In this document: positions 1 to 60,699 of the stretch, in pieces
How positions within the stretch are numbered: the stretch's first letter is position 1
How the letters are laid out: each line of letters opens with the position of its first letter
Source of the DNA: Anadara kagoshimensis
Taxonomy: Eukaryota > Mollusca > Bivalvia > Arcoida > Arcidae
NCBI GenBank assembly: GCA_021292105.1
Contig: CM037870.1
Span: forward strand, 46,518,576 to 46,582,575
DNA: 64,000 nt
Reading direction: 5' to 3'
The notes under the pieces: model-generated
Told to the model about the DNA's origin: nothing
The model's input: the letters and a program-made list of their open reading frames with translations, nothing else
The model's database searches: none
Made by a program: the position numbers and the translations under genes

Positions 1-1837
1 GTGCACTACTCGTATCTAATAACTATAGGTCAAAATACCATATCAAGATAAAAAGTCATAAATATATGAAACTGGAAACAAGTTAGTCCAATAAAGTTTT
101 TGTCAACTAAGTTTTTCTCCCAGGCTTTCCGATAACGATTCTAAAATAAAATTTTGACTTTAAGTTTTTGTAAGCATATGTTTATCAAGGCCTTTAAAAC
201 TATATGGTCGTCATCAAAATATTGATGGTAAGTATTTTGTCTCTATATCCTGCTTATGTTTTACATTCCACAATGCCATACTTTTTTATTCTCAATTTGA
301 TTAACACACGTAGCAGTTTTAGGCAGATAGACAGGGGGTGCTCAGCCTTTGGAGCTCACTGTCTCACATCCTTGATCAAAGTTCATGTGTATATCTTAAT
401 TTGCCAGTTTTCAGATTTTGCTGTGCTTTGATGTTTGTGATTTAAAAATGCATTGTTATCTTTGTTGTTTTATTTCTCTAATCTTTACAAGATATTTTAC
501 GGCAGTCAATTAGAGATGTCAAGATATACAATGTGTGATTAAAGAAAAACCATGTACCAAAAAAAACTATAATGAATTTAAGCTTTAGGGCTGTAGAAAA
601 TGTCTGTATATGTACAGTAGCTTCAATTGTATTGGCAGCACTGGGATTTCAAACGTAGGTCTGTAGAATATATCTGAGCATGTGTAAACATTGACGTCTC
701 TCTTGAGTGATCACAACTACTCTCCGAAGAAGATATACAGTCAAATACGTACTAATTATTCAGAAATGTATATAACCATCGGAATTAATGAAGATATATC
801 CGGGATCCAGGACGTGTTATAGCAATTAAGTCAATTATTCATTTAATCCTTTGATTCTGGTATTTATCAAAATAAACAAGCAGGTGATTTATCGTTATTT
901 ATGGAGCGATCATTTAATCACCCGCGAGCAATACAAATTATGGTACAGACAAATTATAGACTAATACAAATAAGAATAAAAATATGAGTAAATAAACTTA
1001 AAATTACGCATCGTTAAATATCATTTATAATTCAAAAAATCAATAAAATATCCATTAAAACAGATCATAAATAAAAACGCCAACCCTTGGGTACGACATT
1101 TGTATTGACCTTACACATAAATTTCTTCAAACTGACATTTTGATTGTAATTTGGGGAAAAAAGATATTTTTCCAATATGCCAATAATATCTAGAAAATGT
1201 AATCTATTATGAATTTTAAGTATAATTTTTATCATCAGGCATTATCGAACTTGGTGTCTTTGGTAGGTAATTGAAATAAATTCAATTTACTCTATATGAC
1301 ATGAGGTCATTAACAAAATTACAGGTTGTGCCATCAATACACATTCCATACCATTATTACAATACCAGCCTAAACATATATATTTTATTCTAACAAACAC
1401 ACTTATATATTCCATATATAACGAATGAGTTTCAGTCTGTGGAAGGAGACTCCAGAGGGAAACTGACGTCCAATTGTCTTCTTAATCAGCAACTCTTAGA
1501 GCGGTTTGTCTTGTTATATCGGCTTTAAAGAAAGTCACTGACACTTTGATCAATTATCGTTAATATTGCTGTCTGTAATAAACATGATGTATTTGTTTAT
1601 TACAATGTATATAATATAATAGAGGTCGTCTAAAAACACCACTTAAAAGGGTTAAATTGGCATAAACTTAAATAAAAAAGAAAGAAATTTGCAACTGAAA
1701 AACAAGTACTTGGCAACAGCCAACGCACCCACGAACACGAAACAATACAAGTAGGTACCAAAATGTCAAACAAGACAAGAATGCAATTGTCTGACACTAT
1801 TTTACGGTGAAGTGGCATACAAAAAAATAAATAAATA
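1..1837. other. AT-rich DNA, no gene seen
   Basis: No frame shows coding character, and I see no RNA gene, TIR or tandem repeat. The short open frames here are AT-rich, without a recognisable domain or splice context. Confidence 0.6.
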
Positions 1838-2105
1838 AACATATCGATTCATGTCCAAACCTAAATTCCAAAGCAAAGCATAAACTTTTAAGCTGGTATA
1901 TTAGGTTGGACAGGAAAGTGAAGCTAGGTGCTCCGGAAGGTTAAGCACCAATGTTTTAGCTAGTAACATCCGTCACGTGTGTAATAATTTTTGAAATAAA
2001 GGAACAAGGAACTATGGGAAGTCAAATATGTTCATGGTAGTTATGGATATAGAAACATCATGCATATCAACAATATTGTGATGACGGTCATAAAACTTTT
2101 TGTTG
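1838..2105 (+). repeat. Family A dispersed repeat, copy 1
   Basis: This is one of about twenty copies of a dispersed element called family A here. In order, the recognisable landmarks are a CATGTCC block near the start, an AAAGCAAAG block, the GGTGCT / AGCACC hairpin around CCGGAAGG (1927-1949), a CACGTGTGTAAT block, a GTCAAATAT block and an AATATTGTGATGACGG block. No coding capacity is visible and no clear pol III B box was found, so its class is unknown. Confidence 0.8.
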
Positions 2106-4298
2106 ATAAACATATAAAATTTAAGCAAGACTTTATTTAGGACACATCTAAACTATTTGAGCAACCCAACAAAACTATTTGTCAAATCAGATGGCTATAA
2201 AAATGCCGGTCTGTTACAATGCGTGTTTAACAGGTACTATGATGAAATTAAAATCAAACACACTAATCCCAAACTTGAAGGAACAAATATATTCGGTAAA
2301 TTAGAATTCCTCATCAGTAGGTACTTTTTGTGATTCGCACTTTTGACAAGGGACTATAACTCCCCGAAAAATGACCAAGCCATGCCACCTTGGGTTAATG
2401 ATTTGCGCATTTACTATCATTGGTAATGCTTTACAACAAGTTTCGTAAAAAAAGTGTTTCATAGTTTTGGAGAGTTACCCCGGACAAGACGTTTATGGGC
2501 GGAAAGACTGGTGGATGGAAGAACAGAAAGACTTAATTTCGAATTTGATATCTCCTTTTTTCCAAAGTGGAAATAAAATTGGGATAAAAATAATCAGATT
2601 TAGCCAAATAACATGTACTTAAGAAAATCTAGAGGAATCAGGAACACTTTAACATAAATTGAATTATACAAGAAAAAAGACACAGGATAGAACAAATCGT
2701 ATGGAATAAGAAATAAGGATACGCTTAATTACATCACATCTATTTGGATGTTGACATATATCTTACATTATGACAGTAACTTCACATCATCCATGTTGAC
2801 CTTGCTTCTACGTGAACTCAGGTGCTAGAGAGAGTGTTTGTTAAAGAATTAAGCAGCTACTAGAAGAATATTAATCCTGCTAATTTCTAACTTTTTTAAC
2901 ACAGTAATAGATTTGTAGTTGTTTTTCTCGAACTCAACAAATGAGGAAATTTGTAGGTTTCATTGTCATACATAACAGGAAATGCACTTGTATCTAAACC
3001 AATGACTCGATAAAATACCTTGCTTCATTTACCATCTGCCCTTAATACATCATGACATTTCATTAAATATCATCAAAATTTTATGATCGGAAGCTTATTA
3101 AGTGTCAATATACCATAGTTTTATAGGTGTCATTAAATCCTACCATAATCACCTTAAATTCTGTTTATTGCCAACTTGCTCCTAAATAGAACAAAGACTT
3201 AATATCAAATCAAACAATTCGGCTTCCTACAGTTTCGTTAAATGTTTTGTCGCTTTGCATGATTCCAAACTAAATGACATAATTGCACCAAGCCTTCAAA
3301 ATGGAGTGTTGTCATAAAACAAGATACTAGTATATTCTCTCGTTGATTAAACTTGGTGATATAACAGGATTGAGTTACTGATACAGGAATAGATTTTATA
3401 TACAATTGTTTGAAAACTGCGGACGAGTTCTTTGATCTTTTTCTATTTAATGCTTTGATATCACGTGTTGGCTAGTTATAAATTAGTTTTGCTCTCTTAT
3501 CTGTTTTAGTTCTCTTATTTATAGAGTGTGATTTGTGTTCAATTGACTGGTTGCAAAAACGCCTAAAATCAATTGGCTTAAAGATTGCCGGCATACTTAT
3601 TTACAGTTGCACTGTGTAACCTTGCGAAACGCACTGGCGACAGATAGATTTTAAAGTGAAAGATCCCATCAATTTTGTCAGGAAATGTGTTTGGCCTTGG
3701 ATTATTGTGCTTACGTTATTGTTTGATTCATATACATATTTTATAAACATCTCATCACCCAAACAAGTACCTATTAAATATATTATCACAACAACAAACA
3801 ATGAAAAAATAGAACAAGTTAACCAATACGCGATACCTTCTGGATTTGGACAGACATTGCTTTAAAAATTGTGACAAACAAAACAAACAAGCATTTTGTA
3901 ACTGTTCCCAAACTCCACTTAGGCATGGAAAATTGGTCAAATGTCAAAAAGTCAACTGAAATACCTTGTTGCAAACAAGGTTTAAAAACTACATTGAATA
4001 CCTGATTTCGACCAGTCACCATGTCTTCTTTGGTCATATGGCCATTAATCATGTAGGCAAAAAGTTACAAGGCATTTCTTATCAACTAAATGAAACTGTT
4101 TATGAGACATGAAGACCAATGCAAAAGCCTTCATTTTTGGTTCGAGAGTTAATTACAAACTTTTATCCACTAATGACGTCTATGTTCATTTTACCGTATG
4201 GGTTTATTACCCAAGAAGGGTCTATAAGCATGTGTATTTTTCCATAAGCCATATAACAATGAAATGTGAAATATATAATTATTAAAAAATTTACTAAT
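2106..4298. other. AT-rich DNA, no gene seen
   Basis: Several 60-77 aa open frames overlap on both strands around 3600-4050. They have no recognisable domain, no convincing splice sites and mirror each other, so I do not call them genes. No repeat structure was found. Confidence 0.55.
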
Positions 4299-4645
4299 CA
4301 AAAACAAACAATTTATTTCATGTCCGAATCACAATTCAGAAGCAACGTAAAAACTAGCTACACCCGCCATGTGTGTAATCAAAATTGTGTGAATATGGAA
4401 ATATCGTACGTCAAATATATCCAGGGCAATCCTGGACACAGAGAATCTAATTTATCAACAATACTGTGATGACGGCCATAAAACTTTTGCTTTGATAAGC
4501 TAAGACGTTTAATATCCTTACGTCAACAATTTATTTGCAAACAACCTGCTTCGTTGTACAAAGTCTCTGTAGTGGGAACAAGCTCTACCATAGCATATTA
4601 ATTGAGAAACAAATACACCACAAGCAGGAGAAGCAGGTATATTGC
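4299..4645 (+). repeat. Family A, internally deleted copy
   Basis: The copy begins with the CATGTCCGAATCAC block, then jumps from the AGCAACGTAAAAAC region straight to the TAGCTACACCCGCCATG block. About 130 bp, including the hairpin, are missing. The 3' half is well preserved and runs through the CAAGCAGGAGAAGCAGGTAT block also seen at 36.36 kb. Confidence 0.8.
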
Positions 4646-6593
4646 TGCATAGAAAAGGAAAGTTGACATTAAATGAAATTTTCTTATCAGAAGTTGAACC
4701 AACATACACATATGAATTAAAAAATAACATTTATTATACTTCAGGTGTGTCCTTTTCCTAATAGATTTACGTTTCTTATAAAATCGGTCCGTTCATTAAG
4801 TGTTAGAAGCAATATCAGACCATTAGCCAATTAATTCCTAGTATTTCCACTTCTGAAATTATGCTTTACGGAATTGTACTTTAGTTTTAATTCATTTCTT
4901 TTATGTTTTTTGTACAATTACTGTAATAATCAACGGTTAGAAATACTATCAGGAGTAACGGAATATTTGATCACATGATTAATTACTAAGGATTCCAATA
5001 AAATGGAAATAGAATATTCCGGAAACATCTAGAATCAATGATTAAACGATAGGAAATTAGAAAAAGCAAGTATTCTGTAGAGTTAACAAGGTCTGTCAAA
5101 AACAATTAAAACTACATCAGTCAATTTGCGGTCATACACGAACAATTAGGGGATGTAGCTCTGTAAAGAATACAAATAATGGTAGTTGAATAAACTCATA
5201 AAAAACAGAAATGTGTGCCGTTCATGGTTTTACTGCTACCAGATTTTGAAGATATTTATTTTGCCAGCATAACAAACCAATATGAAGGCGTTTGACTTGA
5301 ATAATTTGAGACAAGAAATGTGTAAAGAATGGAAGCAGAGAAAAATTAGGTGATTTAATTCGGAAGAAACATATCTAGGTACTTTCCTTCGTTTTACCCC
5401 TTCCACATTTTTGAGATATTTACCTAGTCAGTATAATAAACTAATTATAAGACGTTTGACTTGCATACAGTTTGCGAACATCAACTGTAATGTAATGACA
5501 ATAATTACGGAAAATATGCCGAATTGTGTGTCTCAGAAATTTAAAAAAAAATATGATTAAAGAAATTTCCATACAATGTCCATAGATAATGCCGTATTAG
5601 ATGCCTCAACTATGATAGACTTGATTATCATCCTTCAGAAAGAAAAATAACTATATATTTTAGATGAAGAGATTAACTTTACATTGCTTAGAAAAAGAAA
5701 GTCATACAAGTACATAGAAATCCCTATGTAAACAGTGCATAGATGTTGTAGAGTTTCTGCTTTTGAATGAATACAGAGTTTATCAAAAATACCAGAAGCG
5801 TGTTTCTTGAATTAGTCATCATCCCACCCATTGTGGTATAAAACATTAATAACTTTACCAGGAAGCATAGACAAAATCCTAAAACATATCATTTTTACTT
5901 TCAATATTACTTTTTCTTCTGAAAAGACCAGGAAATATTGTGTTTTAGCACATGAAGAATCCTTAATAAAATTATACAACTTAAACTTACCAACTCCCCC
6001 CCTCCCCCGGCAACAAATAAGACATAATTTCGTCTGCTTAATTCATCCATATTTAACTTTTTTCAAACTTAATTTTTTATCTTTTTTAAAAAATATGTCT
6101 ATACAGATATAAAAAATTGTTTTGTGCAGACAATTTTTACAGCTAATTCTTATAATCTTGTTAAAAGAAAGAAACAAAATTATATTCTGTTCCCTTGTGA
6201 TGAAAAAACTAGTGTAGATTATTGAATAATGTTTTTCCGAGAATCAAGACTACTCCATTTTATTACTAATGAAGTCGCGATTGTTGAAGTTAATAACACT
6301 ATTGGCTTTATAGGTTTTCGAAAATTGGCTGAAAATTATCCGAAAAAATTTATGCATACGGGTAGAGATGCAATTTTCTACCCAATCAGAAAACAAGATT
6401 TGTGCAAAGAAAGCGCTAGCAAAATACTTTTTCAAGAAAAAAGTTTCAAACCTATTTTTATCGTTTGTACTTTTTGTATCCTTGATTGGCAATATATAAT
6501 GTAATCGCGTCAACCATGGTAAATTTGCGACTTCCGGGAATAACAACAATCGGCGTTACAAGAAACTGCTTTTAATGACGTAACGTGATAATG
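4646..6593. other. AT-rich DNA, no gene seen
   Basis: No convincing gene. Opposed open frames of 91-99 codons at 6229-6549 lie antiparallel in the same DNA and show no known domain. 5990-6010 is a C-rich patch. 6576-6583 reads TGACGTAA, a motif that recurs in each unit of the following tandem repeat. Confidence 0.5.
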
Positions 6594-6673
6594 CGTCTTT
6601 TGACGTATCCGACGGAAACATTTGTTTTCTGATGTCAAATTGGCGGGAACGTTTTTATGGTACATATTTTACC

Positions 6674-6719
6674 AGCACTAGACGACAGTTTCGGAATATA
6701 CTTTCTCATCAGTAGTACT
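6674..6719 (-). ncRNA. Hammerhead ribozyme 1
   Basis: On the minus strand the order is AGTACTA, CTGATGA, a 13-nt stem II region, GAAA, then CTGTCGTC followed by TAGTGCT. AGTACTA pairs with TAGTGCT over 7 bp with one G-U pair. CUGAUGA and GAAA are the invariant core. The A-C / G-U stem III closes a four-base loop, and GUC is the canonical cleavage triplet. Stem II has one mismatch. All core bases needed for self-cleavage are present. Confidence 0.82.
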
Positions 6720-6843
6720 TGATTAAAAAATGTGAAACAAATTAGGACAAGACAACTTCGAGACGTCTTTTGACGTAACCGACGGAAACGTTTGATTTCT
6801 GATATCAAATTGGCAGGAACGTTTTTATGGTACATATTTTATT

Positions 6844-6889
6844 AGCATTAAACGACAGTTTCGGAATATACTTTCTCATCAGTAGTACT
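6844..6889 (-). ncRNA. Hammerhead ribozyme 2
   Basis: This lies exactly 170 bp from ribozyme 1, with the same CTGATGA core, stem II region, GAAA and stem III. Two base changes alter the cleavage triplet to GUU, still within the allowed UH rule, and put a single C-A mismatch in the 7-bp stem I. It may be slower than ribozyme 1 but is structurally complete. Confidence 0.75.
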
Positions 6890-7010
6890 TGATCAAAAAA
6901 TGTGAAACAAATTAGGACGAGAAAACTTCGAGACGTCTTTTGACGTAACCGACGAAAAGGTTTCATTTCTGATGTCAAATTTGCGGGAAATTTTTTATAC
7001 ATGTATCTAA

Positions 7011-7526
7011 AATTTAGTCAATACTTACAGACCTATATTTAAATTACACATTTGTTTCAGCTGAGAAAGTCCAACAGATAGCAGTACGCTTAACCCCTTT
7101 TTAAACCCTGTTATTATATGATCTTGTGTGTAAATATAAGAGTGCTTCTTGCCACGATCTGTGACATTTAACGCATTGATATACTGCTTAAGTCTTTTAC
7201 TCAATGGTATGTATAGATCAACGTCACTGTTAAGTGATACGTTGTTTTATAGCTGTCTATTGATAATTATCCGTATGTCAATATGTTAAATGGTGAAATA
7301 TCCCAATTTTATCGAATTTTAAAAATATTCAGTATGATCTTAATATAAGTAGAATATAAAGAAAGAATAGTTTCAATTTTTGTACTTACTACTAGTAGAT
7401 TATTCAACGCAAAACGTTCCCAGACATTTTATTTTAGTGAAATTTCTTCAGATTCTTTGCATGCCTTAGTTTCTTGACCAAGTATTGTGAATGTATTGGC
7501 AAGGCAGATTGTTACGTATCGTATAA
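7011..7526. other. AT-rich DNA, no gene seen
   Basis: I find no coding stretch, repeat or structured element between the ribozyme array and the next family A copy. Confidence 0.5.
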
Positions 7527-7925
7527 ATCAAAAACAAACAGACTAATCCATGTCTATATAAAAATCCAGAAGCGAACCAAAAACTTTAAAACTGATAAAT
7601 AAAGTTAAACACGTGAAATTGTACCAGGGAAGTGAGGTCGGGTACTCTGAAAGGGTAAACACCTCCTGTTTTGCTAGTCATGTGCTGCCACTTGTGTATA
7701 TAAAAGGGTAAACACCTCCTGTTTTGCTAGTCATGTGCTGCCACTTGTGTATCTAAAAGGGTAAACACCTCCTGTTTTGCTAGTCATGTGCTGCCACTTG
7801 TGTATCTAAAAGGGTAAACACCTCCTGTTTTGCTAGTCATGTGCTGCCACTTGTGTAATTAAAACTAAGAATGAAAGAAATGTGGAATGTCAAATATAAC
7901 CAGGGTAGACATATGATTGTGTGTT
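7527..7925 (+). repeat. Family A copy with internal tandem expansion
   Basis: The 5' part (CCATGTC block, AGTGAGGTCGGGTACTCTGA) and the 3' part (AATGAAAGAAATGTGGAATG, CAAATATAACCAGG) follow the family A order. Between them the segment from the hairpin to the CACTTGTGTA block is amplified four times. Confidence 0.8.
7653..7857 (+). repeat. 53-bp tandem repeat, four copies
   Basis: GGGTAAACACCTCCTG starts at 7653, 7706, 7759 and 7812, a constant 53-bp period with almost no differences between units. The unit corresponds to the family A segment just 3' of the hairpin, so this is a recent local amplification inside a mobile repeat. Confidence 0.93.
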
Positions 7926-8748
7926 TTTGTATAACACTACTATGAATGTTCTATATTCCTGCAAATTAGCTAAATTTCAAAGAGAACAGTTTTTAGCTCG
8001 ATTGACCATTATTACTGTCAGAATCTGTTGTTTTCGTAAAATACTCTCAATAAAAATGTTTAAAGCATGTGGATTCTAAATTTTAATATAAAAGCAACAC
8101 TTGGGGGAAAAACATACGGTCTGCAATTACTATGCAAAATGCGTATTAATGCATTGGTTACTATTTTCATACGTACGTAAATAGTGAATATTTGGATAAT
8201 TGTATAAAAATTGATTATTTTATAAATTTTAAAACGGATTAATACGCATGGAGTACCTTGTTTTCTAGAAAACCTTTTAGGTGCACAATGATCTTTAGAT
8301 CTTCAAAACATGCATTACATAACTGGCTTTACGTCGGCTAATAAAATGATCATTTGCAAGTTATCGATTGTAGGGAAATTGAAATCAACATTTTCAAAGA
8401 TAAATAACTAGTTTTAGAGAAGATTCTTAAATGAATCATTAAATTTGTTACATCTTTTGGATAATCCATCTCTTAAATCCTCTCAATCGGAGGAAAACAT
8501 TGGTGTGTTGGGTGATTTAAAAATCATTAAATCCTCTGTAATAACCATTCGTCAAAACATCCGCCATTAATTATCTAACCACGTGATACTTAACAACAAA
8601 AAGCTTAATGCAACAGGAATAAATTTGAATAACTCTTTCTTTGAGCAAACATATTTCGTCTTTTCATGAAATCATAACGTATATACTGCACAAAAAATAT
8701 GGGACGAACACTCTATCACATGATGAACTTAATTAATATAAACAGACC
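7926..8748. other. AT-rich DNA, no gene seen
   Basis: No coding, RNA or repeat feature can be supported here. Confidence 0.5.
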
Positions 8749-8957
8749 CGTCGAAAGTTTACACTGGGATAACGAACTAGTGCCTGATCGGAAGATCACC
8801 TTGACACCTCGTAAGCTATATCTTTAGGCAGCTACTATTTTTCACCCGGCAGTTTTTCTGTCACTTAAGTATCCATATATCGACCACTTACATGTATCAG
8901 TCGAGTTCAGCTCTGTTTCCTACGCACAGTGTTAAACTTACGACAGGCCTGTACTGT
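8749..8957. mobile_element. MITE-like TIR element, copy 1
   Basis: The left end (CAGACCCGTCGAAAGTTTACAC) and the right end, read in reverse complement (CAGTACAGGCCTGTCGTAAG then TTTAACACT), are inverted repeats. The same termini flank an element of similar size at 29.1 kb. The length of about 210 bp, lack of coding capacity and TIRs fit a non-autonomous DNA transposon. The left TIR has lost its outermost bases. Confidence 0.65.
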
Positions 8958-11073
8958 AATCTGGCATCTATTACAATTTCATATTTTGACATTTTTTTTA
9001 AAATCTCTTCATGTACTAATACATACAAAAACTAAAAGCTTGAACATTATGTCCCTGGAGACACAAACCAAAACGGTATTGACAACGTCACTCAAACTGT
9101 GGCTTTGATCCACTAAAGAAAGTGACGGCAAAATCTGATTAAAATTCCCCAAAATCCATTCAACATTGCCGACGTAATCTAAAAATGACATGGAAGCTAT
9201 ACTCATTTAAACTAGTTAAAAATCGCAAAACCTTTCCAATATCTAACTATCGGAAAATTCCTTGTTACAAGATTATTGTATATTCTGCTTTACGCCACAA
9301 CAATTGTCTGCTTTTATTTACACCCATTATGACATAAGATATAGTTTTAAGGATTTTCCAACGATGATCAATATTACGGAATAACCAATAGTTTTAAACT
9401 TTGATTTTAAGTTGTGCTGAAAAAAACAATATCTGGCAATTTTTAAAAAATTCGAATTTTGACATTTTTTTCAGAATGTCTGCTAATATACAGAATAACT
9501 TATCGCATGAACATCATGTCCCAGGGAACAGATTCAAACAGACTCCGTCACTCAAACTGTCGCTTTGATCCACTGCAAGAAGGTGACGACAAAATCTGAT
9601 TAAAATTCCCTAAAATCGTTTCAACATCTACGACGTCATCTGACAATGACATTGAATCTCTACTTATTTTAACTAGTTAAAAAATCGCGAAACCTTTCTA
9701 ATATCGGAAAATGTCTTGTTACTAGAGTATTTTAATTTACAGTACAGAATGTTGAAACGCCAACACAAATTTTTCCTAGAATTGCAAAATTGCAATTCAG
9801 TTTCACAACTTTCATCCATCCGCCGTTTTATAAATAGGGATTATTTTTTACAAGTGCTTTACGGCCGAAAAGGTCGCCTGCATTTATTAATAACCATGAT
9901 GACATAAGATAGCGTTTAGGATTGAGTACCAATGATTAATATGCCGGAATAAACAATTATTGTAAATTCGATATTAACTTTCGCTCAACTAAACCATAAT
10001 CTGGCACTTTTAAAAATATCATATTGTAAAATTTTTCCAGAATGCCTGCTGAAACGGTTTTTTTGACGTCACTCAAACGGAAGTTTTATTGAAATTCCCC
10101 GAAACCGAGTTAACATCTACGACGTAAACTGACAATAACATGGAAGCTCTACTCATTTCAACTAGTTAAAAAAAATAACAAAACCTTTCCAATAACGAAA
10201 ATTCCTTGTCACCAGAGTATTTTAATTATCAGTATAAAATGACAGAACAACAACACAACCTTTTTCCTAGAATTGCAATTCTGTTTTACAACTTTCATCC
10301 TTCCGCCGTTTAGTAGAGAGTGGTTACTTTTAACAAGTGCTTTATCGCCGAAAAGGTCGCCTGCATTTATTTATAACCATTATGACATAAGATAGTGTTC
10401 AGGATTGAGTACCAATGATTAATATGCCGGAATAAACACATTATTGTAAATTCGATATTAAATTGCGCTTAACAAAACAATAACATGGCACTTTAAAAAA
10501 AATCATATCGTGAATGTTTTTCCTGAATGCTTGCTGATACACAGAACAACTTATCGCATTTATACAAACATCATGTTCCCAAAACAGAAACCAAACCGGT
10601 TTTTACGACGTCACTCAAACTGACAGTTTATTAAAATTTCCTGAAATTGATTAAACATCTACGACGTAAATTGACAATGACATGGAAGCTCTACTCATTT
10701 TAACTAGTTTGAAATCAAGAAACCTTTCTAATATGAAAATATAGAAAAGTTTTTTGTTACCAGGATATTTTAGTATTTTAATTTACAGTGGAAACGCCAA
10801 CAAGGCTTTTTTCGAGAATTGTGTTTCGGTTTTACATCCCCAAGCCGTGTTTTAAACAGGGATTACTTTAGTCTCACTCATAACATAACATGAGATATAG
10901 TTTAGAATTGTACATCAATGATTTATACGCGAAAAAAAACAATAGTTTGAAATTCGATTAAAAATCGGCTGAACAAACAATGCATCATCTAAAGGATTTC
11001 CATTATGAGAGGACAACTCGTTCAGTTTATGCAAACAACCAAATATGGCCTTTATTTAGATTTATTCAGTCAG

Positions 11074-21373: not shown

Positions 21374-23929
21374 TTAGATGAATTCTAGTAATAAAAGCAA
21401 CTGTCCTATTGATGATAAAAGTCTATCACCAGTTGGATATGATTATAACTAATATTTTGTTTTGTTGTTTTTTTAATTATATTTGTTTTGTATACGGTGT
21501 CCGTATCAATATTCATTAATCAATGATGCATGTATGTACAATGTAATTATTGTTAAAATTGGAGGAAAAAATTGCTCTTGGCAATAACGAACGTAGAAAG
21601 ATCACCAAGATGAAACAACCTGACAGGACAAGGGGAAAAACGCATATCGGGATCACTGATAACAAAATTTCGATTTTTGACGGGTTCTAGATTACGTGTC
21701 CAGTGGTTCCGTTAAATTAATTCTTAGGAGTAAAACATCACGATTATATGATGCAAAAGTATAATATTTATATCCTATGTGTCAGATGGATAAACAAAAA
21801 GTATCAGTCTACTCAATTAAACCATCCATATGTCGAAACAAATTAATATCTCGTCGTGTTATGAACTTACATTATGAAACACGCGCGATTTGTTTTAACT
21901 TCTTTCGTTACATGAATAAATAAAATAAAAAATACTGTTTTATAAGACGAAACGGTTTATAGCATAAACAGAATTTGAATCTATGGTAACTGTCTGAAAA
22001 AATATGTTTGTTTATTGTGTAGACAATACCAGACGGAATGGTAGATTTAAAATTTTTGCGATACTGACTGTTTAAATACTAAAAAAAAACTGTAAAATAT
22101 GGATTTTAGATTTATCTAATAAACTGTTTGTCTGCCTACTGCGTGTTTTAGATGGGTTTTTACGTCTATTTGACAAAAAATGTTACGAACTTATAATTTA
22201 AGCGTAAAGCAATGTTTCACTATATATAATCTTTAACATTTTATAAGCAGACACTGGATTTAGGAAGACTAACATGCGATTAAAGGCGATTCTATTTTAC
22301 AATTCTTGTACCAAGAATGCTTTGTTAATTCATGCATCTTAAAAACATGTAGTCATCATGTAATGGAAAATAGCTTAACACCGGATATCTGTTTACACTT
22401 AAAACTTAAATATAATCAACAATGATATTTTGAATGAAAACATCTAGTGTTTGTGTTTAGTCTGGAAACAATTTACAGGTATAAAACGTAATTATAAATA
22501 GATTATATAATGATTTTAAGAAAACTTTATTTAACTTACTTCAAGATGTATTTGTCATGTTAAGAAACAAAAAAATCAATCCAATTCAATATTTTACTAT
22601 AGACCTTTATAATTTATAACCTATTTAATTTTCCTTTGTATTAATGCATTATTTGAATTTGCGCATCTTACAAACATACGAAACTGTTACAAAAGTAAAA
22701 CCTTTCAAAACGTTGCCGTAAATACAGACAAGTTATTAAGCCAGAAAAACAAACAACAGATCTCAAATTAAGATTGATTAGTATTGGTACTTTAAATATA
22801 ACCACCCATTATACAATCTTTTATATTGATATCTGTACAAGTTCTTGTTTTACTATGGCAACCTATTTGATTATATAAAATAAAGTTTGTTTAATGGAAA
22901 ACATACTTTGTTTTGCCAGGAAAATCCATAGAGATACATATCGCATGTTGTGAATCACATGAGAAACAAGAACCATTGCAAATATTTACAAATTGATATC
23001 AAACAAACAAACCGCGAAGCCTTTAAAACACGTATTTAACAATAGCTTGAAGAACAAAGACGGATGAAATAAGAACATACAATAAGTCAAATATCTAAAC
23101 ATCTTATGATAAAGCTACTAACTCGCAGGTGTAGGTCATAATTACAAAGTGGTACCCGGTGATCATAATTTGATAGAATAAGGGATTCGGCATAAGGAAA
23201 GTACTTATAATAATGTCAAAAACTTATCCAGTGGTGTGATGTGATGCAAGTATTGTTGCTTCATTCAATTCAGACAATACCTCGTTGTATTGGAAATGTC
23301 TATTTAGTAATTCATTTAGCTTTACGTGAAAATAAATTTATAATTTAATGTTTTTAAATTTCCTGCAAGATCACGCATTTACAATAAGAAATGCAATTTA
23401 ATAATATTTTTAATAATCATTCTGAAATTTACACCATCGAGCAAAATGTAACTTCGTTTTCTGTCAAAAAAGTTAATATGATTTTTCTAAATACTTTAGT
23501 TTGTAGTAAAAACTATTACTCTTACGCGAAAAAGTTAAATTTTAACCAAACATATAGAGAAATTAAACCATGATGGTTATAATACACGCATTTATTAATT
23601 ATTTTATTATCTATTATTAACAGTTATAAGATCACTGAAACAAAGTAACAATGTGATTAGAGAAGATAAAGTTACAAATAAAAGCTTACCTTTTCCTTCT
23701 TTAACTGTACATAGTCAACCAATGATCAATAAATCTCCACGATAGAGTATTGCTCTATTAACAGCTTAAAAAGCTGATATACATCCTTCCACTTGAAGAT
23801 TGGACTTGTATATGAACGCCACAAGCAATACCAAATCAATAAAAAGCAGCTGAAAATAAGCTCATGAATAATTAACTAGTAAACAGCGAGACAGCTCAAA
23901 CAGCACACGCTAAATTAACTGATATCTTG
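21374..23929. other. AT-rich DNA, no gene seen
   Basis: Nothing can be supported here. The 60-codon frame at 23391-23573 is AT-rich and without context. Confidence 0.5.
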
Positions 23930-24901
23930 TATAACTGGTCGGGACATTTTTTTCGATGTTACAATGCTCCATGCGACTACGAAAAGTAGTGTTTGTTTAT
24001 AACGCTAATTTAACTGATATCTTGTTTAACTGGTCGGGGCATTTTTTCGATGTTACATTGCTTCATGCGACTACGAAAAGAAGTGTTTGTTTATAACGCT
24101 AATTCAACTTATATTTTGTTTAACTGGTCGGGACATTTTTCCGATGTTACAATGCTTAATTAAGTTGTAAATGACCTGACAGTTTCAATGCCGTGTTTGT
24201 TTTCAATTGACATCTTTTTTAGATGGCCGTGATAAATTTCTTTCCAGACAGTTCCAACAGTGTGTTTGGTTATAATGCCAATTTAAATGATATGTCGTGT
24301 AACTGGTCGGGACAATTTTCTTGATGCTCCAATGCTTCATACTAGGTCTTTGGTATAAAGTTGTAAATGACAAGACAGTCCCAACGCAATGTTTATTTAT
24401 AACGCCAAATTGACTGATATCTTGTTTAACTGGTCGGGACATTTTTCCGATGTTACAATGCTTAATATGAAGTCTTTGGTATCTACTTGTAAATGACCTG
24501 CCGGTTTTAATGCCGTGTTTGTTTTCAACTGACATCTTTTTAGATGGCCGTGATAATTTTCTTTCCAGACAGTTCCAACAGAGTGTTTGGTTATAATGTT
24601 ATAATGCCAATTTAACTGATATGTCGTGTAACTGGTCGGGACATTTTTCTTGCTGTTCCAATGTTTCATACAGCGTCTTTGGTATTTAATGACAAAACAA
24701 ACAAGACAATTACAATGCCGTTTTTATAACGCCATTACAACCATTCAACTAATGTTTTGTTCAACCTGCCGGGATATTTTTATATTTTTCTTGATGTTTC
24801 AATGCTTCATGTGAGCTCTTAGATACCTAGACCGTTTCAACACCGTGTTCTGCAATCAACTGATATCTTGTGTAACTGATCATGACAATTTTCCTGATGT
24901 T

Positions 24902-37183: not shown

Positions 37184-37400
37184 TTACATGTTAAAAGAGT
37201 TTTAATTTTACAGCACTAAACGGCCGTTTCGGAACCCAATTCCTCATCAGTATTGCTTGGTCCAAAATTGTGAAACCAATTTTTTTTCTAAAATGTTGAA
37301 AAGTTACCCAAAGGACCAAATATATTTTACCAAATTTTGACTAAGAAATTCTTTGCATGAGGGAGTATACCTTGTATTTTGAGGAATTTAACCTCTAATG
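37160..37400 (-). repeat. Family C, hammerhead-bearing repeat, copy 1
   Basis: Homologous in inverted orientation to 48475-48720. Shared blocks are TTGCTATATA, AGTTTTAATTTTACAGCA, CCAATTTTTTTTCTAAAATG, GGACCAAATATATTTTACCA and GAGTATACCTT. The strand given is that of the ribozyme. It may be part of a Penelope-like terminal repeat or a single-unit retrozyme; no reverse transcriptase was found beside it. Confidence 0.7.
37212..37257 (-). ncRNA. Hammerhead ribozyme 3
   Basis: On the minus strand: AGCAATA, CTGATGA, GGAATTGGGTTCC, GAAA, CGGCCGTT, TAGTGCT. Stem I pairs over 7 bp with one A-G mismatch. Stem II is a clean GGAA/TTCC helix with a five-base loop. Stem III is A-C/G-U around GGCC, and the cleavage triplet is GUU. 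The core is fully conserved. Confidence 0.78.
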
Positions 37401-48474: not shown

Positions 48475-48720
48475 AGGATTATATTTTTGTGCAAGTAAAT
48501 CCCCAACACTAAGGTATACTTCCGCATGTTAAGTATTTCTTTATCTAAATTTGGTAAAATATATTTTGGTCCTTTTTGTTTATTTTCAACATCTTGAAAA
48601 AAAATTGGTTTAACAATTTTTGTCCAAGCACTACTGATGAAGTAATGTAAATGGAAACGGTCGTCTATTGCTGTAAATTAAAACTGGTATAATACGTAAT
48701 TACATTTATTTCTATATAGC
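48475..48720 (+). repeat. Family C, hammerhead-bearing repeat, copy 2
   Basis: Inverted relative to 37160-37400 and about 80 percent similar by eye over some 240 bp. It ends with CTATATAGCAATGCA. The ribozyme is on the plus strand. Confidence 0.7.
48627..48672 (+). ncRNA. Hammerhead ribozyme 4 (stem II decayed)
   Basis: AGCACTA, CTGATGA, 13 nt, GAAA, CGGTCGTC, TATTGCT. Core, stem III and the canonical GUC cleavage triplet are intact. Stem I has one C-U mismatch. The stem II region no longer pairs well, so activity is doubtful. Confidence 0.68.
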
Positions 48721-57088: not shown

Positions 57089-58102
57089 ATGACTTTGAAA
57101 ATTTTATCATTAAATTGCCAAGGTCTGGGAGACAAACTTAAACGAAGAGATGTATTTCACTATCTAAATTCACTTGATTATAACTTATATTGTTTACAAG
57201 ATACACATTTCACCTTTGAAATTAATTCGTCGATAGAACAGGAATGGGGTTATAAATGTGTTTTCAGTTCATTTAGGTCAAATGCAAGGGGTGTTTGTAT
57301 ACTTTTTAAAAATAATTTTGAATTTGAATTGTTAAAAGAATCACATGATAAAAATGGAAATTATATTGCAATCGAAATCTTTGTTGAGCAGAGAAAAATA
57401 ACTCTTGTAAACCTATATGGCCCTAATAAAGATGACCCGATTTTCTATAACAATATCTTTGAAATAATTGCTGAATTTGGAAATAACAATTTTATTATCT
57501 GTGGTGACTTTAATCTTTGCTTGGACCCTGATTTAGACTCATTCAATTACATTCGTACAAATAACCCAAATGCCAGAAACAAATTATTAGATTTTATTCA
57601 GGAAAATAATTGCATAGATGCATTTAGAGAGCTTAATCCAAATTTGAAAAGATATACTTGGAGAAGAAAAAACCCTCTAAAACAAGCGAGATTGGATTTC
57701 TTCATATTAAGTAAAACTTTATCGACAGATACATTTCAAGCTTTTATAAAACCAGGTTATCGTTCAGATCATTCATTAGTCCAATTACAAATGACGTTGA
57801 ACGAATTTATTAGGGGAAGAGGATTGTGGAAATTTAACAATTCTTTATTATATGACTTACAATACATTAAAACAATAAAAGAATTAATAAGTAAAATCAA
57901 ATTACAATATGCAATCCCAGTCTATGATTTAGATAATATTGATAAAATACCACTTGACTCCGTTCAATTCAATATAAATGATCAATTATTTTTAGAAACT
58001 TTATTAATGGAAATCAGGGGTAAAACTATTTCATACGCGAGTTATGTAAAAAAACAAAAAGAAAATCAAGAGACAACATTGATGGATGAAATAAAATACT
58101 AG
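57089..58102 (+). pseudogene. LINE ORF2, APE endonuclease part
   Basis: This is the apurinic-type endonuclease that nicks target DNA to prime reverse transcription. Motifs in order: SLNCQG at residues 7-12 (metal-binding Asn 9), CLQDTH at 35-40 where the family usually has Glu in place of Asp 38, NLYGPN at 108-113, GDFN at 139-142, TWRR at 190-193, ARLDFF at 200-205 and SDH at 226-228. The ATG lies in a good context (GCCGCCATG). The frame is closed by a TAG at 58100-58102, after which the same frame continues open into the reverse transcriptase, so this stop splits a single ORF2. The product would be one protein of roughly 1,250 residues with the following parts. Confidence 0.92.
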
Positions 58103-59485
58103 GAAGAAAATTTAAATGATCAAAATTTTGGTATATTAGAGGGTAAACGGGTACAATTAGAGAATGTCAGAAAAGAAAAAATCAAAAGTTCTATCGTTCG
58201 ATCGCGAGTTAAATGGGTAACAGAGGGCGAAAAACCAACAAAATTTTTCTGCAACTTGGAAACAAAAAATTATTTGAATAAAATTATACCTAGAATAGAA
58301 AAAAATAACGGAGATATCATAACTGATCAAAAAGAAATTTTGAAAGAAATTGGAAGTTTTTATAGTAATCTGTACTCTGAAAACCGTAATATTTTAGATG
58401 TAGATTTAAACGACTATCTCAACAATTGTGACTATTCAAAATTAACCAAAAGCGAATCTGATCGTTTAGAAGGTGTTATTACTGAAAAAGAAGCTTTATA
58501 TACATTAAAGAATATGAAAAATGATAAAAGTCCTGGCTCTGATGGTTTTACTGTTGAATTTTTTAAAGTATTTTGGAATGACATTGGGCCCTTTATTATT
58601 CGATCTTTAAATTATGGGTATAAAAATGGACAACTTTCAGTAACACAAAGGGAGGGAATAATAACATGTATACCAAAAGAAGGAAAATCTAAACACTTAT
58701 TGAAAAATTGGCGCCCAATTACTCTTCTTAATACGGTATATAAAATAGGCTCAGGGGTTATAGCGAACAGAATTAAACCGACTTTAAATAATATAATTGG
58801 TAAAGAACAAACGGGTTTCATTCCAGGGAGATATATTGGAGAAAATACCAGACTAATATACGATATAATGCAATATACTGAATACAATGATATTCCTGGG
58901 TTATTATTATTAGTAGACTTCGAAAAGGCTTTCGATTCAATCTCTTGGTCCTTTTTAGACAAAGTATTAACTCTTTTTAATTTTGGAATTTCTATAAGAA
59001 AATGGATTTCTAGTTTCTATAAAGATATTAAATCTGCAGTTACACAAGGGGGAAATTTAACAAACTTCTTTCAAATTAAAAGAGGCTGTAGACAAGTGGA
59101 CCCTTTGTCACCATATATCTTTTTACTATGTGTTGAGATTTTAGCAATAAAAATTCGAAATAATTTGAAAATAAAAGGAATTAGAACAAATCTTACTGAA
59201 TCTAAAATATCTCTATTTGCAGATGATACTTGTCTTATATTGGACGAATCTGAACTTTCGTTACGACAAGCTTTATGCGAACTTGATGTTTTTGCAAACA
59301 TTTCGGGTCTTAAAATAAATTATGATAAAACTCAAATTATTTGGATAGGAAATAAAAAATACAGTGAAGAGAAACTATGTATAGACTATGACTTACACTG
59401 GGGCAATACTCGTTTTACATTACTTGGTATTATATTTGATGTAGATATAGATAAAATTACCAAATTAACTTCGACCAGAAATTAA
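58103..59485 (+). pseudogene. LINE ORF2, reverse transcriptase part
   Basis: In frame with the endonuclease after the TAG. Classic non-LTR RT blocks follow in order: a KSPGSDGFTVEFFK block, CIPKEGK, LKNWRPITLLNTVYKI, EQTGFIPGRYIGENTR, LLLVDFEKAFDSISW, GCRQVDPLSPYIFLL and the catalytic FADD (about 59214-59225, with the first catalytic Asp in DFEKAFD). GCRQVDPLSP has Val where nearly all relatives have Gly, a likely damaging change. The wording of these blocks places it in the L1/Tx1 group. A one-base shift near 59455-59461 moves the continuation to another frame, and this frame ends at TAA 59483-59485. Confidence 0.93.
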
Positions 59486-60699
59486 ATACAGTACGGATGT
59501 TAATAAAGTCATGGAAAAAACGAAATCTCACTCCGATTGGAAAAATCACAGTGATAAAAACACTCCTCATCTCACAATTAAACCATTTATTTATTTCATT
59601 ACCAAATCCAAACCAGAAAATTATTACTGAACTTAATACAATTTTATATCACTTCATATGGGATAGTCCTACTGGTAGAGTCAAAAGAGATGTTTTAATA
59701 AAAGAGTACGAAGAGGGAGGGTTAAAAATGGTTCATTTGATTTCTTATATAAATGCTCTTAAAACTACTTGGATAAGGAGGCTGCTACATGAAGAAAGCA
59801 GTTGGAAAGAAATTCTGAATTCTCAAATAGATATCCACAAATTTCTTAGTGTTGGGGAGGACTTTATAACTGAAAATATTGAAAAGATAAAAAACAATTT
59901 TTGGATTGACGTCTTTAAAGCATGGTTATTGTTAATTAAAACATGTCACACATTAAAAACTTACAAGCAACCTTCTGAAAACTTTCTTTGGTACAATAGT
60001 TACATAAAAAAGGGGAATAAATCCATGTTTTTTAGACAATTATACGATAAAGGTGTTAAATTTGTTAACGACTTACTCGATATAGATGGAAATTTTTTAG
60101 ACCTCAAAAGTTTTAACAATTGTTTTAATTGTAATATAAATTTTGTAGACTTTAATGGTATAATTTCATCGGTGAAATGTATGTTGAAAAAGAATAATCA
60201 AGCGCCTGTTTCTAAAGTTGAAAATCCATTTATTCCAGTGAATTTAAAAGTATTTTTTATCAGTAAGAAAGGTTCAAAAGACATGTACAAAATCTTGAAG
60301 CAAAATAATATGATACCAACCGCAAGGTTAAAATGGCAAGAAATCTTTGAAGATTTAAATACAGAAACGTGGAAAGAAATCTATAAATTAATTTTTTCAA
60401 CAACATCAAGTACAAAACTGCAATGGTTTCAATACAGAATTGTTAATAATATAATCGGTACTAACGCCTTTTTGTTTAAGATTAATTTAAGAAATGATCC
60501 AAAATGTACTTTTTGTAAACAAAGTAATGAAACTGTTATACATCTCTTCTGGGAATGTGAATATGTGCAAAATTTTTTAGAAGAAGTAGATACCTGGTTT
60601 TTACAAAACAGCATACTATTAGATTTTACAAAACTTCATTTTATATTAGGAGACTTTAGTTTAAATAATAGAATAAAAAATTTGATTATAGTCCATTAA
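59461..60699 (+). pseudogene. LINE ORF2, thumb and C-terminal zinc region
   Basis: It continues the RT in the next frame. WKKRNLTPIGKITVIKTLL matches the conserved block after the RT palm in L1/Tx1 proteins, and LISQLNHLFISLPNPN is the usual follower. Near the end CTFCKQSNETVIHLFWEC (about 60504-60560) is the C-x2-C-x7-H-x4-C zinc-binding motif of the RT-associated zf-RVT region, thought to hold RNA or DNA. The frame stops at 60697-60699. Confidence 0.9.

What the first reader, a model, noticed from the sequence alone, without database searches (positions are those of the whole stretch)
6594..7010. Retrozyme-like 170-bp tandem repeat with two complete hammerhead ribozymes
Seen: a 170-bp period and, on the minus strand of two units, CTGATGA, a 13-nt stem II region, GAAA, a 4-base stem III loop and a paired 7-bp stem I. 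Known: metazoan retrozymes are tandem hammerhead repeats of about this size, reported from invertebrates including bivalves, that produce small circular RNAs. Inferred: cleavage at 6680/6681 and 6850/6851 would release a 170-nt RNA ready for circularisation. The unit is very short and this sequence may be an undescribed member.
Basis: partly seen in the sequence, partly recalled or inferred. Interest (0 to 1): 0.85.

Follow-up and report, generated by a model that had tools for sequence, protein, structure and literature searches.

The report
Duplicated fossil of a hammerhead retroelement
Two copies of an old, partly decayed self-cutting RNA motif sit in a small local DNA duplication; they look like remnants of a very common animal mobile element of a known kind, not a new 170-base circular RNA.

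Summary
The sequence is much as described: a 2.4-copy, 170-bp tandem repeat (6594-6998) with a type I hammerhead core on the minus strand of both full copies. The reading as a 170-nt retrozyme is very probably wrong. The hammerheads belong to a family with 10,426 near-exact cores in this genome (control 0) and a usual tandem period of 325-355 bp (803 junctions). Only about 85 of the 170 bases match that family. The 65-bp remainder (R) has seven matches genome-wide: five in this locus and its ~1.5-Mb-distant paralog, two elsewhere, without hammerhead or 170-bp tandem. The paralog has one hammerhead. Best reading: a 5'-truncated solo insertion, later duplicated with 65 bp of flank. Unit 1 keeps 12 of 14 model pairs and GUC; unit 2 has 11 and GUU. 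In the parent family, 15 of 20 copies taken in genome order end 35-40 nt past the cleavage site with variable 5' ends, like the 'tail' of Penelope-like elements; such elements in this genome carry a different minimal hammerhead and end about 64 nt past it. A relic of a new member of a known kind.

The parts
6594..6998 (.). 170-bp tandem array, 2.4 copies (full units 6594-6763 and 6764-6933, plus a 65-bp partial third copy)
   Evidence: TRF; unit alignment
6681..6712 (-). hammerhead core of unit 1 (CTGATGA to GTC); predicted cleavage 6681/6680; 12 of 14 model pairs
6851..6882 (-). hammerhead core of unit 2 (CTGATGA to GTT); predicted cleavage 6851/6850; 11 of 14 model pairs, stem I C-A mismatch
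6664..6750 (-). part of unit 1 homologous to the genome-wide ~340-bp family (sense positions 14-100 of the 170, widest extent over three loci)
6661..6680 (-). tail downstream of the cleavage site in unit 1 (short form, 14 nt less than the common form)
6594..6658 (.). R1: 65-bp flank copy next to the unit 1 hammerhead
6764..6828 (.). R2: 65-bp flank copy between the two hammerheads (92% to R1, 88% to R3)
6934..6998 (.). R3: 65-bp flank copy without hammerhead (86% to R1); its homology to R1/R2 stops within about 3 bp of the end of the hammerhead tail
689..9949 (.). stretch shared with C14:45020000-45029999 (L041), pieces 93.6-98% identical (the fetched 10 kb limits the extent); that copy holds one hammerhead
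37219..37250 (-). further fossil copy of the same hammerhead family, solo
48634..48665 (+). further fossil copy of the same hammerhead family, solo, 10 of 14 model pairs

Best explanation
A 5'-truncated copy of an abundant hammerhead-carrying non-autonomous retroelement (unit about 340 bp) inserted here long ago in minus-strand orientation. The insertion, together with a 65-bp flanking direct repeat (R), was then tandemly duplicated, probably by unequal exchange between R copies (inferred), so the 170-bp period is accidental. The region also exists as a paralog about 1.5 Mb away on the same chromosome. The parent family probably moves by reverse transcription that starts at a fixed place about 37 nt past the hammerhead cleavage site, on RNA still continuous through that site (circle or uncleaved multimer), in the manner of Penelope-like elements (inferred from copy ends). 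The local pair has no evident function now.
For: 10,426 cores within 2 mismatches, control 0. Arrays of period 339 and 344; 803 junctions at 325-355 bp. BLAST of the 170-bp unit to family arrays covers sense positions 14-100 at most. R, searched alone: 7 matches, all 7 candidates scored; 5 are this locus and its paralog, 2 (C17, C16) elsewhere. Neither of those two 1.2-kb loci has a match to the family array, a hammerhead core or a 170-bp tandem, and one of them also matches window sequence beyond the array's edge. The paralog has one hammerhead. R3 lacks the hammerhead and its homology stops at about the tail's end. Family copies in genome order: 15 of 20 end at +35 to +40, 5' ends from -51 to -350; one (L060) interrupts a minisatellite, so both insertion ends can be read.
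Against: How the local duplication arose is not shown. R1/R3 (86%) could be an older repeat or a long target-site duplication, which I did not see at most other copies. Units 1 and 2 differ at 12 of 170, unit 1 and the paralogous unit at 4 of 170, so the paralog lost a unit or unit 2 changed faster; unresolved. Strongly diverged relatives could escape these searches.
Confidence: 0.87

Rival explanations
1. A genuine 170-nt retrozyme: minus-strand transcripts self-cleave at both hammerheads and the 170-nt product is circularised and reverse transcribed.
For: Two tandem cores with intact CUGAUGA and GAAA; size at the lower edge of published ~170-400 nt circles (PMC7229834 abstract); 35% G+C.
Against: R relatives elsewhere lack the hammerhead. 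Unit junction and core plus tail occur only here and in the paralog. The paralog has one hammerhead. The array runs 65 bp past the family's usual 3' end. Unit 2 has GUU and a broken stem I. The 170-nt RNA folds no better than shuffles, z -0.19. Hammerhead spacings of 155-185 bp are rare, 22 against 803 at 325-355; those patterns cannot see the window's own loop variant.
Confidence: 0.05
2. The hammerhead copies are pieces of pseudo-LTRs of a full Penelope-like element (PLE) rather than of a separate non-autonomous family.
For: Minimal hammerhead with a 2-bp stem III and, in 32 of 43 copies, an 8-base self-complementary stem III region (G-U allowed) suited to dimers; fixed tail past the cleavage site; 50 GIY-YIG matches, 150 of 248 candidates scored.
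Against: Of three GIY-YIG loci read, two carry a minimal hammerhead of a different sequence (CTGAAGA core) about 90 nt past the open frame and the third none by this scan; none has this family's core there. The two family arrays read hold no long open frame (longest 112 and 82 aa stop to stop).
Confidence: 0.15
3. Chance resemblance to a hammerhead in AT-rich DNA.
For: No Rfam match in the window.
Against: Pattern expectation 0 in 100 shuffles; 10,426 family cores, control 0.
Confidence: 0.01

Closest known systems
Metazoan non-LTR retrozymes (Cervera & de la Pena 2020, PMC7229834; mussel family of ~350-390 bp, ~5000 copies)
   Different: The window's 170-bp unit is not dispersed; R is flank sequence. 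Expression as circles is not tested. Not compared with the mussel sequences, which I did not have.
Minimal hammerheads of Penelope-like elements (passages in PMC7761336; Frangieh et al. 2024, PMC11167929)
   Same: Very short stem III, thousands of dispersed solo motifs, copies that end a short fixed way past the ribozyme ('tail', 30-40 bp in the paper; about 37 nt here)
   Different: No PLE frame attached in the copies read; two PLE loci of this genome carry another hammerhead and end about 64 nt past its cleavage site
Newt satellite hammerheads that work as dimers (passage in PMC6155905)
   Same: Weak stem III that would be lengthened in a dimer
   Different: Different host; the window copies have lost the self-complementary loop (TGTC)

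Membership tests
Metazoan non-LTR retrozyme (the window's 170-bp array) | type I hammerhead core with invariant residues | tested here: met
   (CUGAUGA and GAAA present in both; unit 2 has GUU and a stem I mismatch)
Metazoan non-LTR retrozyme (the window's 170-bp array) | hammerheads in tandem repeats of about 150-450 bp | tested here: met
   period 170, 2.4 copies
Metazoan non-LTR retrozyme (the window's 170-bp array) | the unit as a whole is a dispersed mobile repeat | tested here: not met
   unit only in this locus and its paralog; R's two other relatives lack the hammerhead
Metazoan non-LTR retrozyme (the window's 170-bp array) | highly self-paired monomer RNA | tested here: not met
   z -0.19; an intact 339-nt family unit is no better, z 0.04, so this is weak
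Metazoan non-LTR retrozyme (the window's 170-bp array) | low G+C (<50%) | tested here: met
   35%; the whole window is 31%, so it does not discriminate
Metazoan non-LTR retrozyme (the window's 170-bp array) | expressed as linear and circular RNA | not testable with these tools
   no RNA data
Metazoan non-LTR retrozyme (the ~340-bp parent family) | type I hammerhead in multi-copy tandem repeats without coding region | tested here: met
   open frames checked in two arrays only
Metazoan non-LTR retrozyme (the ~340-bp parent family) | expressed as linear and circular RNA | not testable with these tools
   no RNA data
Penelope-like element | RT + GIY-YIG open frame between pseudo-LTRs that hold the hammerhead | tested here: inconclusive
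   3 GIY-YIG loci of 50 matches read: two with a different hammerhead, one with none
Penelope-like element | genomic copies ending at a short tail past the ribozyme | tested here: met
   parent family, 15 of 20

The most novel reading that the evidence does not exclude
The copy ends of the parent family show that a retrozyme-like RNA is reverse transcribed from a fixed internal start about 37 nt past the hammerhead cleavage site, hence from a circle or uncleaved multimer and not from the cleaved linear monomer, by a Penelope-type enzyme. That would answer which machinery moves metazoan retrozymes.
Probability: 0.38. Interest if true: 0.55.

Novelty: new member of a known kind. Interest (0 to 1): 0.25.

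Why it matters
The locus is a relic and of little interest by itself. It warns that a hammerhead pair at a plausible spacing is not enough to call a retrozyme: one solo copy duplicated locally looks the same. The parent family is more useful: over ten thousand near-exact cores, with a sharp common 3' end in the sample read, allow a direct test of how hammerhead retroelements are reverse transcribed.

Tried and rejected
Rejected: Rfam as a yes/no test. The whole-genome search scored 73 of 112,716 candidates and its control genomes were silent too; one of 14 family cores was listed in four loci, below cut-off. The two E<=10 hits in 6500-7100 are weak plus-strand snoRNA matches far below cut-off, dismissed as chance. 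Rejected: chance motif. Rejected: a 170-bp family elsewhere. Corrected on checking: I first read as showing no hammerhead in three PLE loci; my pattern was too narrow. A better scan finds a minimal hammerhead in two of the three. I also first took R to be unique; one search shows two distant relatives, then read. The probe spans the unit junction and overlaps the family-related part, so R was searched on its own. Odds were moved slightly for these two facts. Led nowhere: target-site duplications. The test placed the tail end too early in many rows and is not used, 2 of 14 copies exceeded the 95% level of cross-pairs, one being the minisatellite insertion. Led nowhere: folding of the monomers and literature on hammerheads in bivalves beyond the mussel paper. 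Not resolved: the species.

Full report
Observation. The 170-bp repeat is real: 6594-6998, 2.4 copies, 91% matches. On the minus strand both full units carry CTGATGA-13 nt-GAAAC-4 nt-GTH. That pattern gives 4 matches in the window, 0 in 100 shuffles; the other two are at 37219-37250 (-) and 48634-48665 (+). The stated cleavage places are right. Against a 14-pair model (stem I 7, II 5, III 2) unit 1 forms 12 pairs and unit 2 forms 11, with GUU and a C-A mismatch in stem I; both lack two of five stem II pairs. In a set of 43 copies the two rank 27th (tied with the paralog) and 38th by model energy, and 13 of 43 form all 14 pairs. The set is biased: cores found in loci fetched for likeness to the window, plus the window's four; 44 were found and one was dropped for its different stem II length.

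Family. A 35-base core pattern has 10,426 places at up to 2 mismatches in the 1.115-Gb genome, 0 for the reversed control. Two arrays have periods 339 and 344 and no long open frame (longest 112 and 82 aa stop to stop). Pairs at 325-355 bp number 803, at 155-185 bp 22. The second anchor of those patterns is only 7 bases, so some of the 22 are expected by chance; as far as printed (80 bases) they differ from each other except for look-alike pairs on C7, C9 and C14. These patterns need the common loop and cannot see the window's own array. Among the first 100 exact cores listed on C1, same-strand neighbour spacings under 2 kb are 325, 331, 338, 339 (three times), 357, 675, 677 and 1124 bp; none is near 170.

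Why it is not a 170-nt retrozyme. The unit matches family arrays over sense positions 14-100 at most. In a search with the whole array, 43 matches were listed (40 of 1232 candidates scored); outside this locus and the paralog they lie within query 67-159 or 243-318, the hammerhead part. A probe across the unit junction and one of core plus tail each have three places at 3 mismatches in 35: two here, one in the paralog. The 65-bp R searched alone has 7 matches, all candidates scored: three here, two in the paralog, one on C17 (85% over 55 bp) and one on C16 (83% over 58 bp). The two distant loci (1.2 kb each) have no match to the family array, no hammerhead core and no 170-bp tandem; the C16 locus also matches about 45 bp of window sequence beyond R3, outside the array. 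So R belongs to the surroundings, not to the hammerhead element. The paralog lies about 1.5 Mb away; 689-9949 of the window matches it in pieces of 93.6-98%, with one hammerhead between two R copies. In hammerhead sense the window reads R3, hammerhead, R2, hammerhead, R1; R3 has no hammerhead and its homology stops within about 3 bp of the tail's end. The simplest history is a solo insertion between, or creating, R repeats, then one more duplication. Whether the tandem or the segmental duplication came first is open: unit 1 differs from unit 2 at 12 of 170 and from the paralogous unit at 4 of 170.

How the parent family moves (inferred). I fetched the first 20 places of the list on C1, leaving out the eight that lie in listed tandem clusters. 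They were exact matches to the core, so they are well-preserved copies. Homology ends at +35 to +40 after the cleavage site in 15 of 20; the others are L059 (+8), L065 (+27), L074 (+29) and two arrays (L064, L072); L066 and L068 look like duplicates of each other. The 5' ends of the 15 range from -51 to -350. In the biased set, 35 of 44 show a tail motif with up to 4 differences, mostly near +37, or near +23 in a short form; the short form has 36 places at 2 mismatches. L060 interrupts a minisatellite of about 32-bp units; the element part is 306 bp, 5'-truncated, with no evident target-site duplication. An RNA cut by the hammerhead would end at the cleavage site, so the template probably ran through it. 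PLEs show internal initiation and a 30-40 bp tail (PMC11167929, abstract and passages); in that paper hammerhead mutants did not affect insertion. PLEs have been proposed as helpers of metazoan retrozymes (PMC7229834, discussion). In this genome, of three GIY-YIG loci read, two carry a minimal hammerhead with a CTGAAGA core (three copies; mean 0.0 in 50 shuffles), and the homology between those copies runs to about 64 nt past its cleavage site; the third shows none by this scan. This is another hammerhead, so it shows a similar plan, not a shared sequence.

Literature seen. PMC7229834: abstract, passages, sections 13, 14, 17. It reports circles of ~170-400 nt and, in a mussel, ~5000 hammerheads in ~350-390 bp repeats. 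PMC7761336, PMC6155905, PMC4918200: passages only. Lunse et al. 2017 on PLE hammerheads cleaving as dimers was seen only as a reference-list title. The searches hammerhead ribozyme + bivalve, retrozyme + clam, and hammerhead + mollusc + retrozyme listed, by title and abstract start, no description of this family; the library holds only open-licence papers.

Verdict. It is a relic of a new member of a known kind.

Noticed in passing
window 7646-7864; L041 7352-7930: A 53-bp tandem repeat next to the hammerhead array has 4.1 copies here and 10.9 in the paralog.
   Followed up: partly
window 57089-60699 (+): Remains of a LINE: Exo_endo_phos, RVT_1 and zf-RVT domains in three successive open frames.
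   Followed up: partly
L060: A 5'-truncated hammerhead element (306 bp) sits inside a minisatellite of about 32-bp units, showing both insertion ends.
   Followed up: yes
L053:6761 (+) and 2829 (-); L054:4094 (+): Penelope-like loci carry a different minimal hammerhead (CTGAAGA core, 6-bp stem I, self-complementary loop region AGTACT or AGCGCT) about 90 nt past an open frame in two of the three cases; copies are alike to about 64 nt past the cleavage site.
   Followed up: partly
L054: A GIY-YIG element with an inverted partial copy of itself (99% over 1475 bp); a unit of the ~340-bp family lies about 1 kb past its open frame, in opposite orientation.
   Followed up: no
window 6594-6658; C17:58453361-58453415; C16:20782060-20782117: The 65-bp R sequence has two single relatives on other chromosomes (83-85%) without hammerhead; what R is remains unknown.
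   Followed up: partly
family cores: The stem III region is self-complementary over 8 bases (G-U allowed; mostly ACGGCCGT or ACGGTCGT) in 32 of 43 copies, as expected if two hammerheads pair into a dimer.
   Followed up: partly
window 23907-24157: A 94-bp tandem repeat, 2.7 copies.
   Followed up: no
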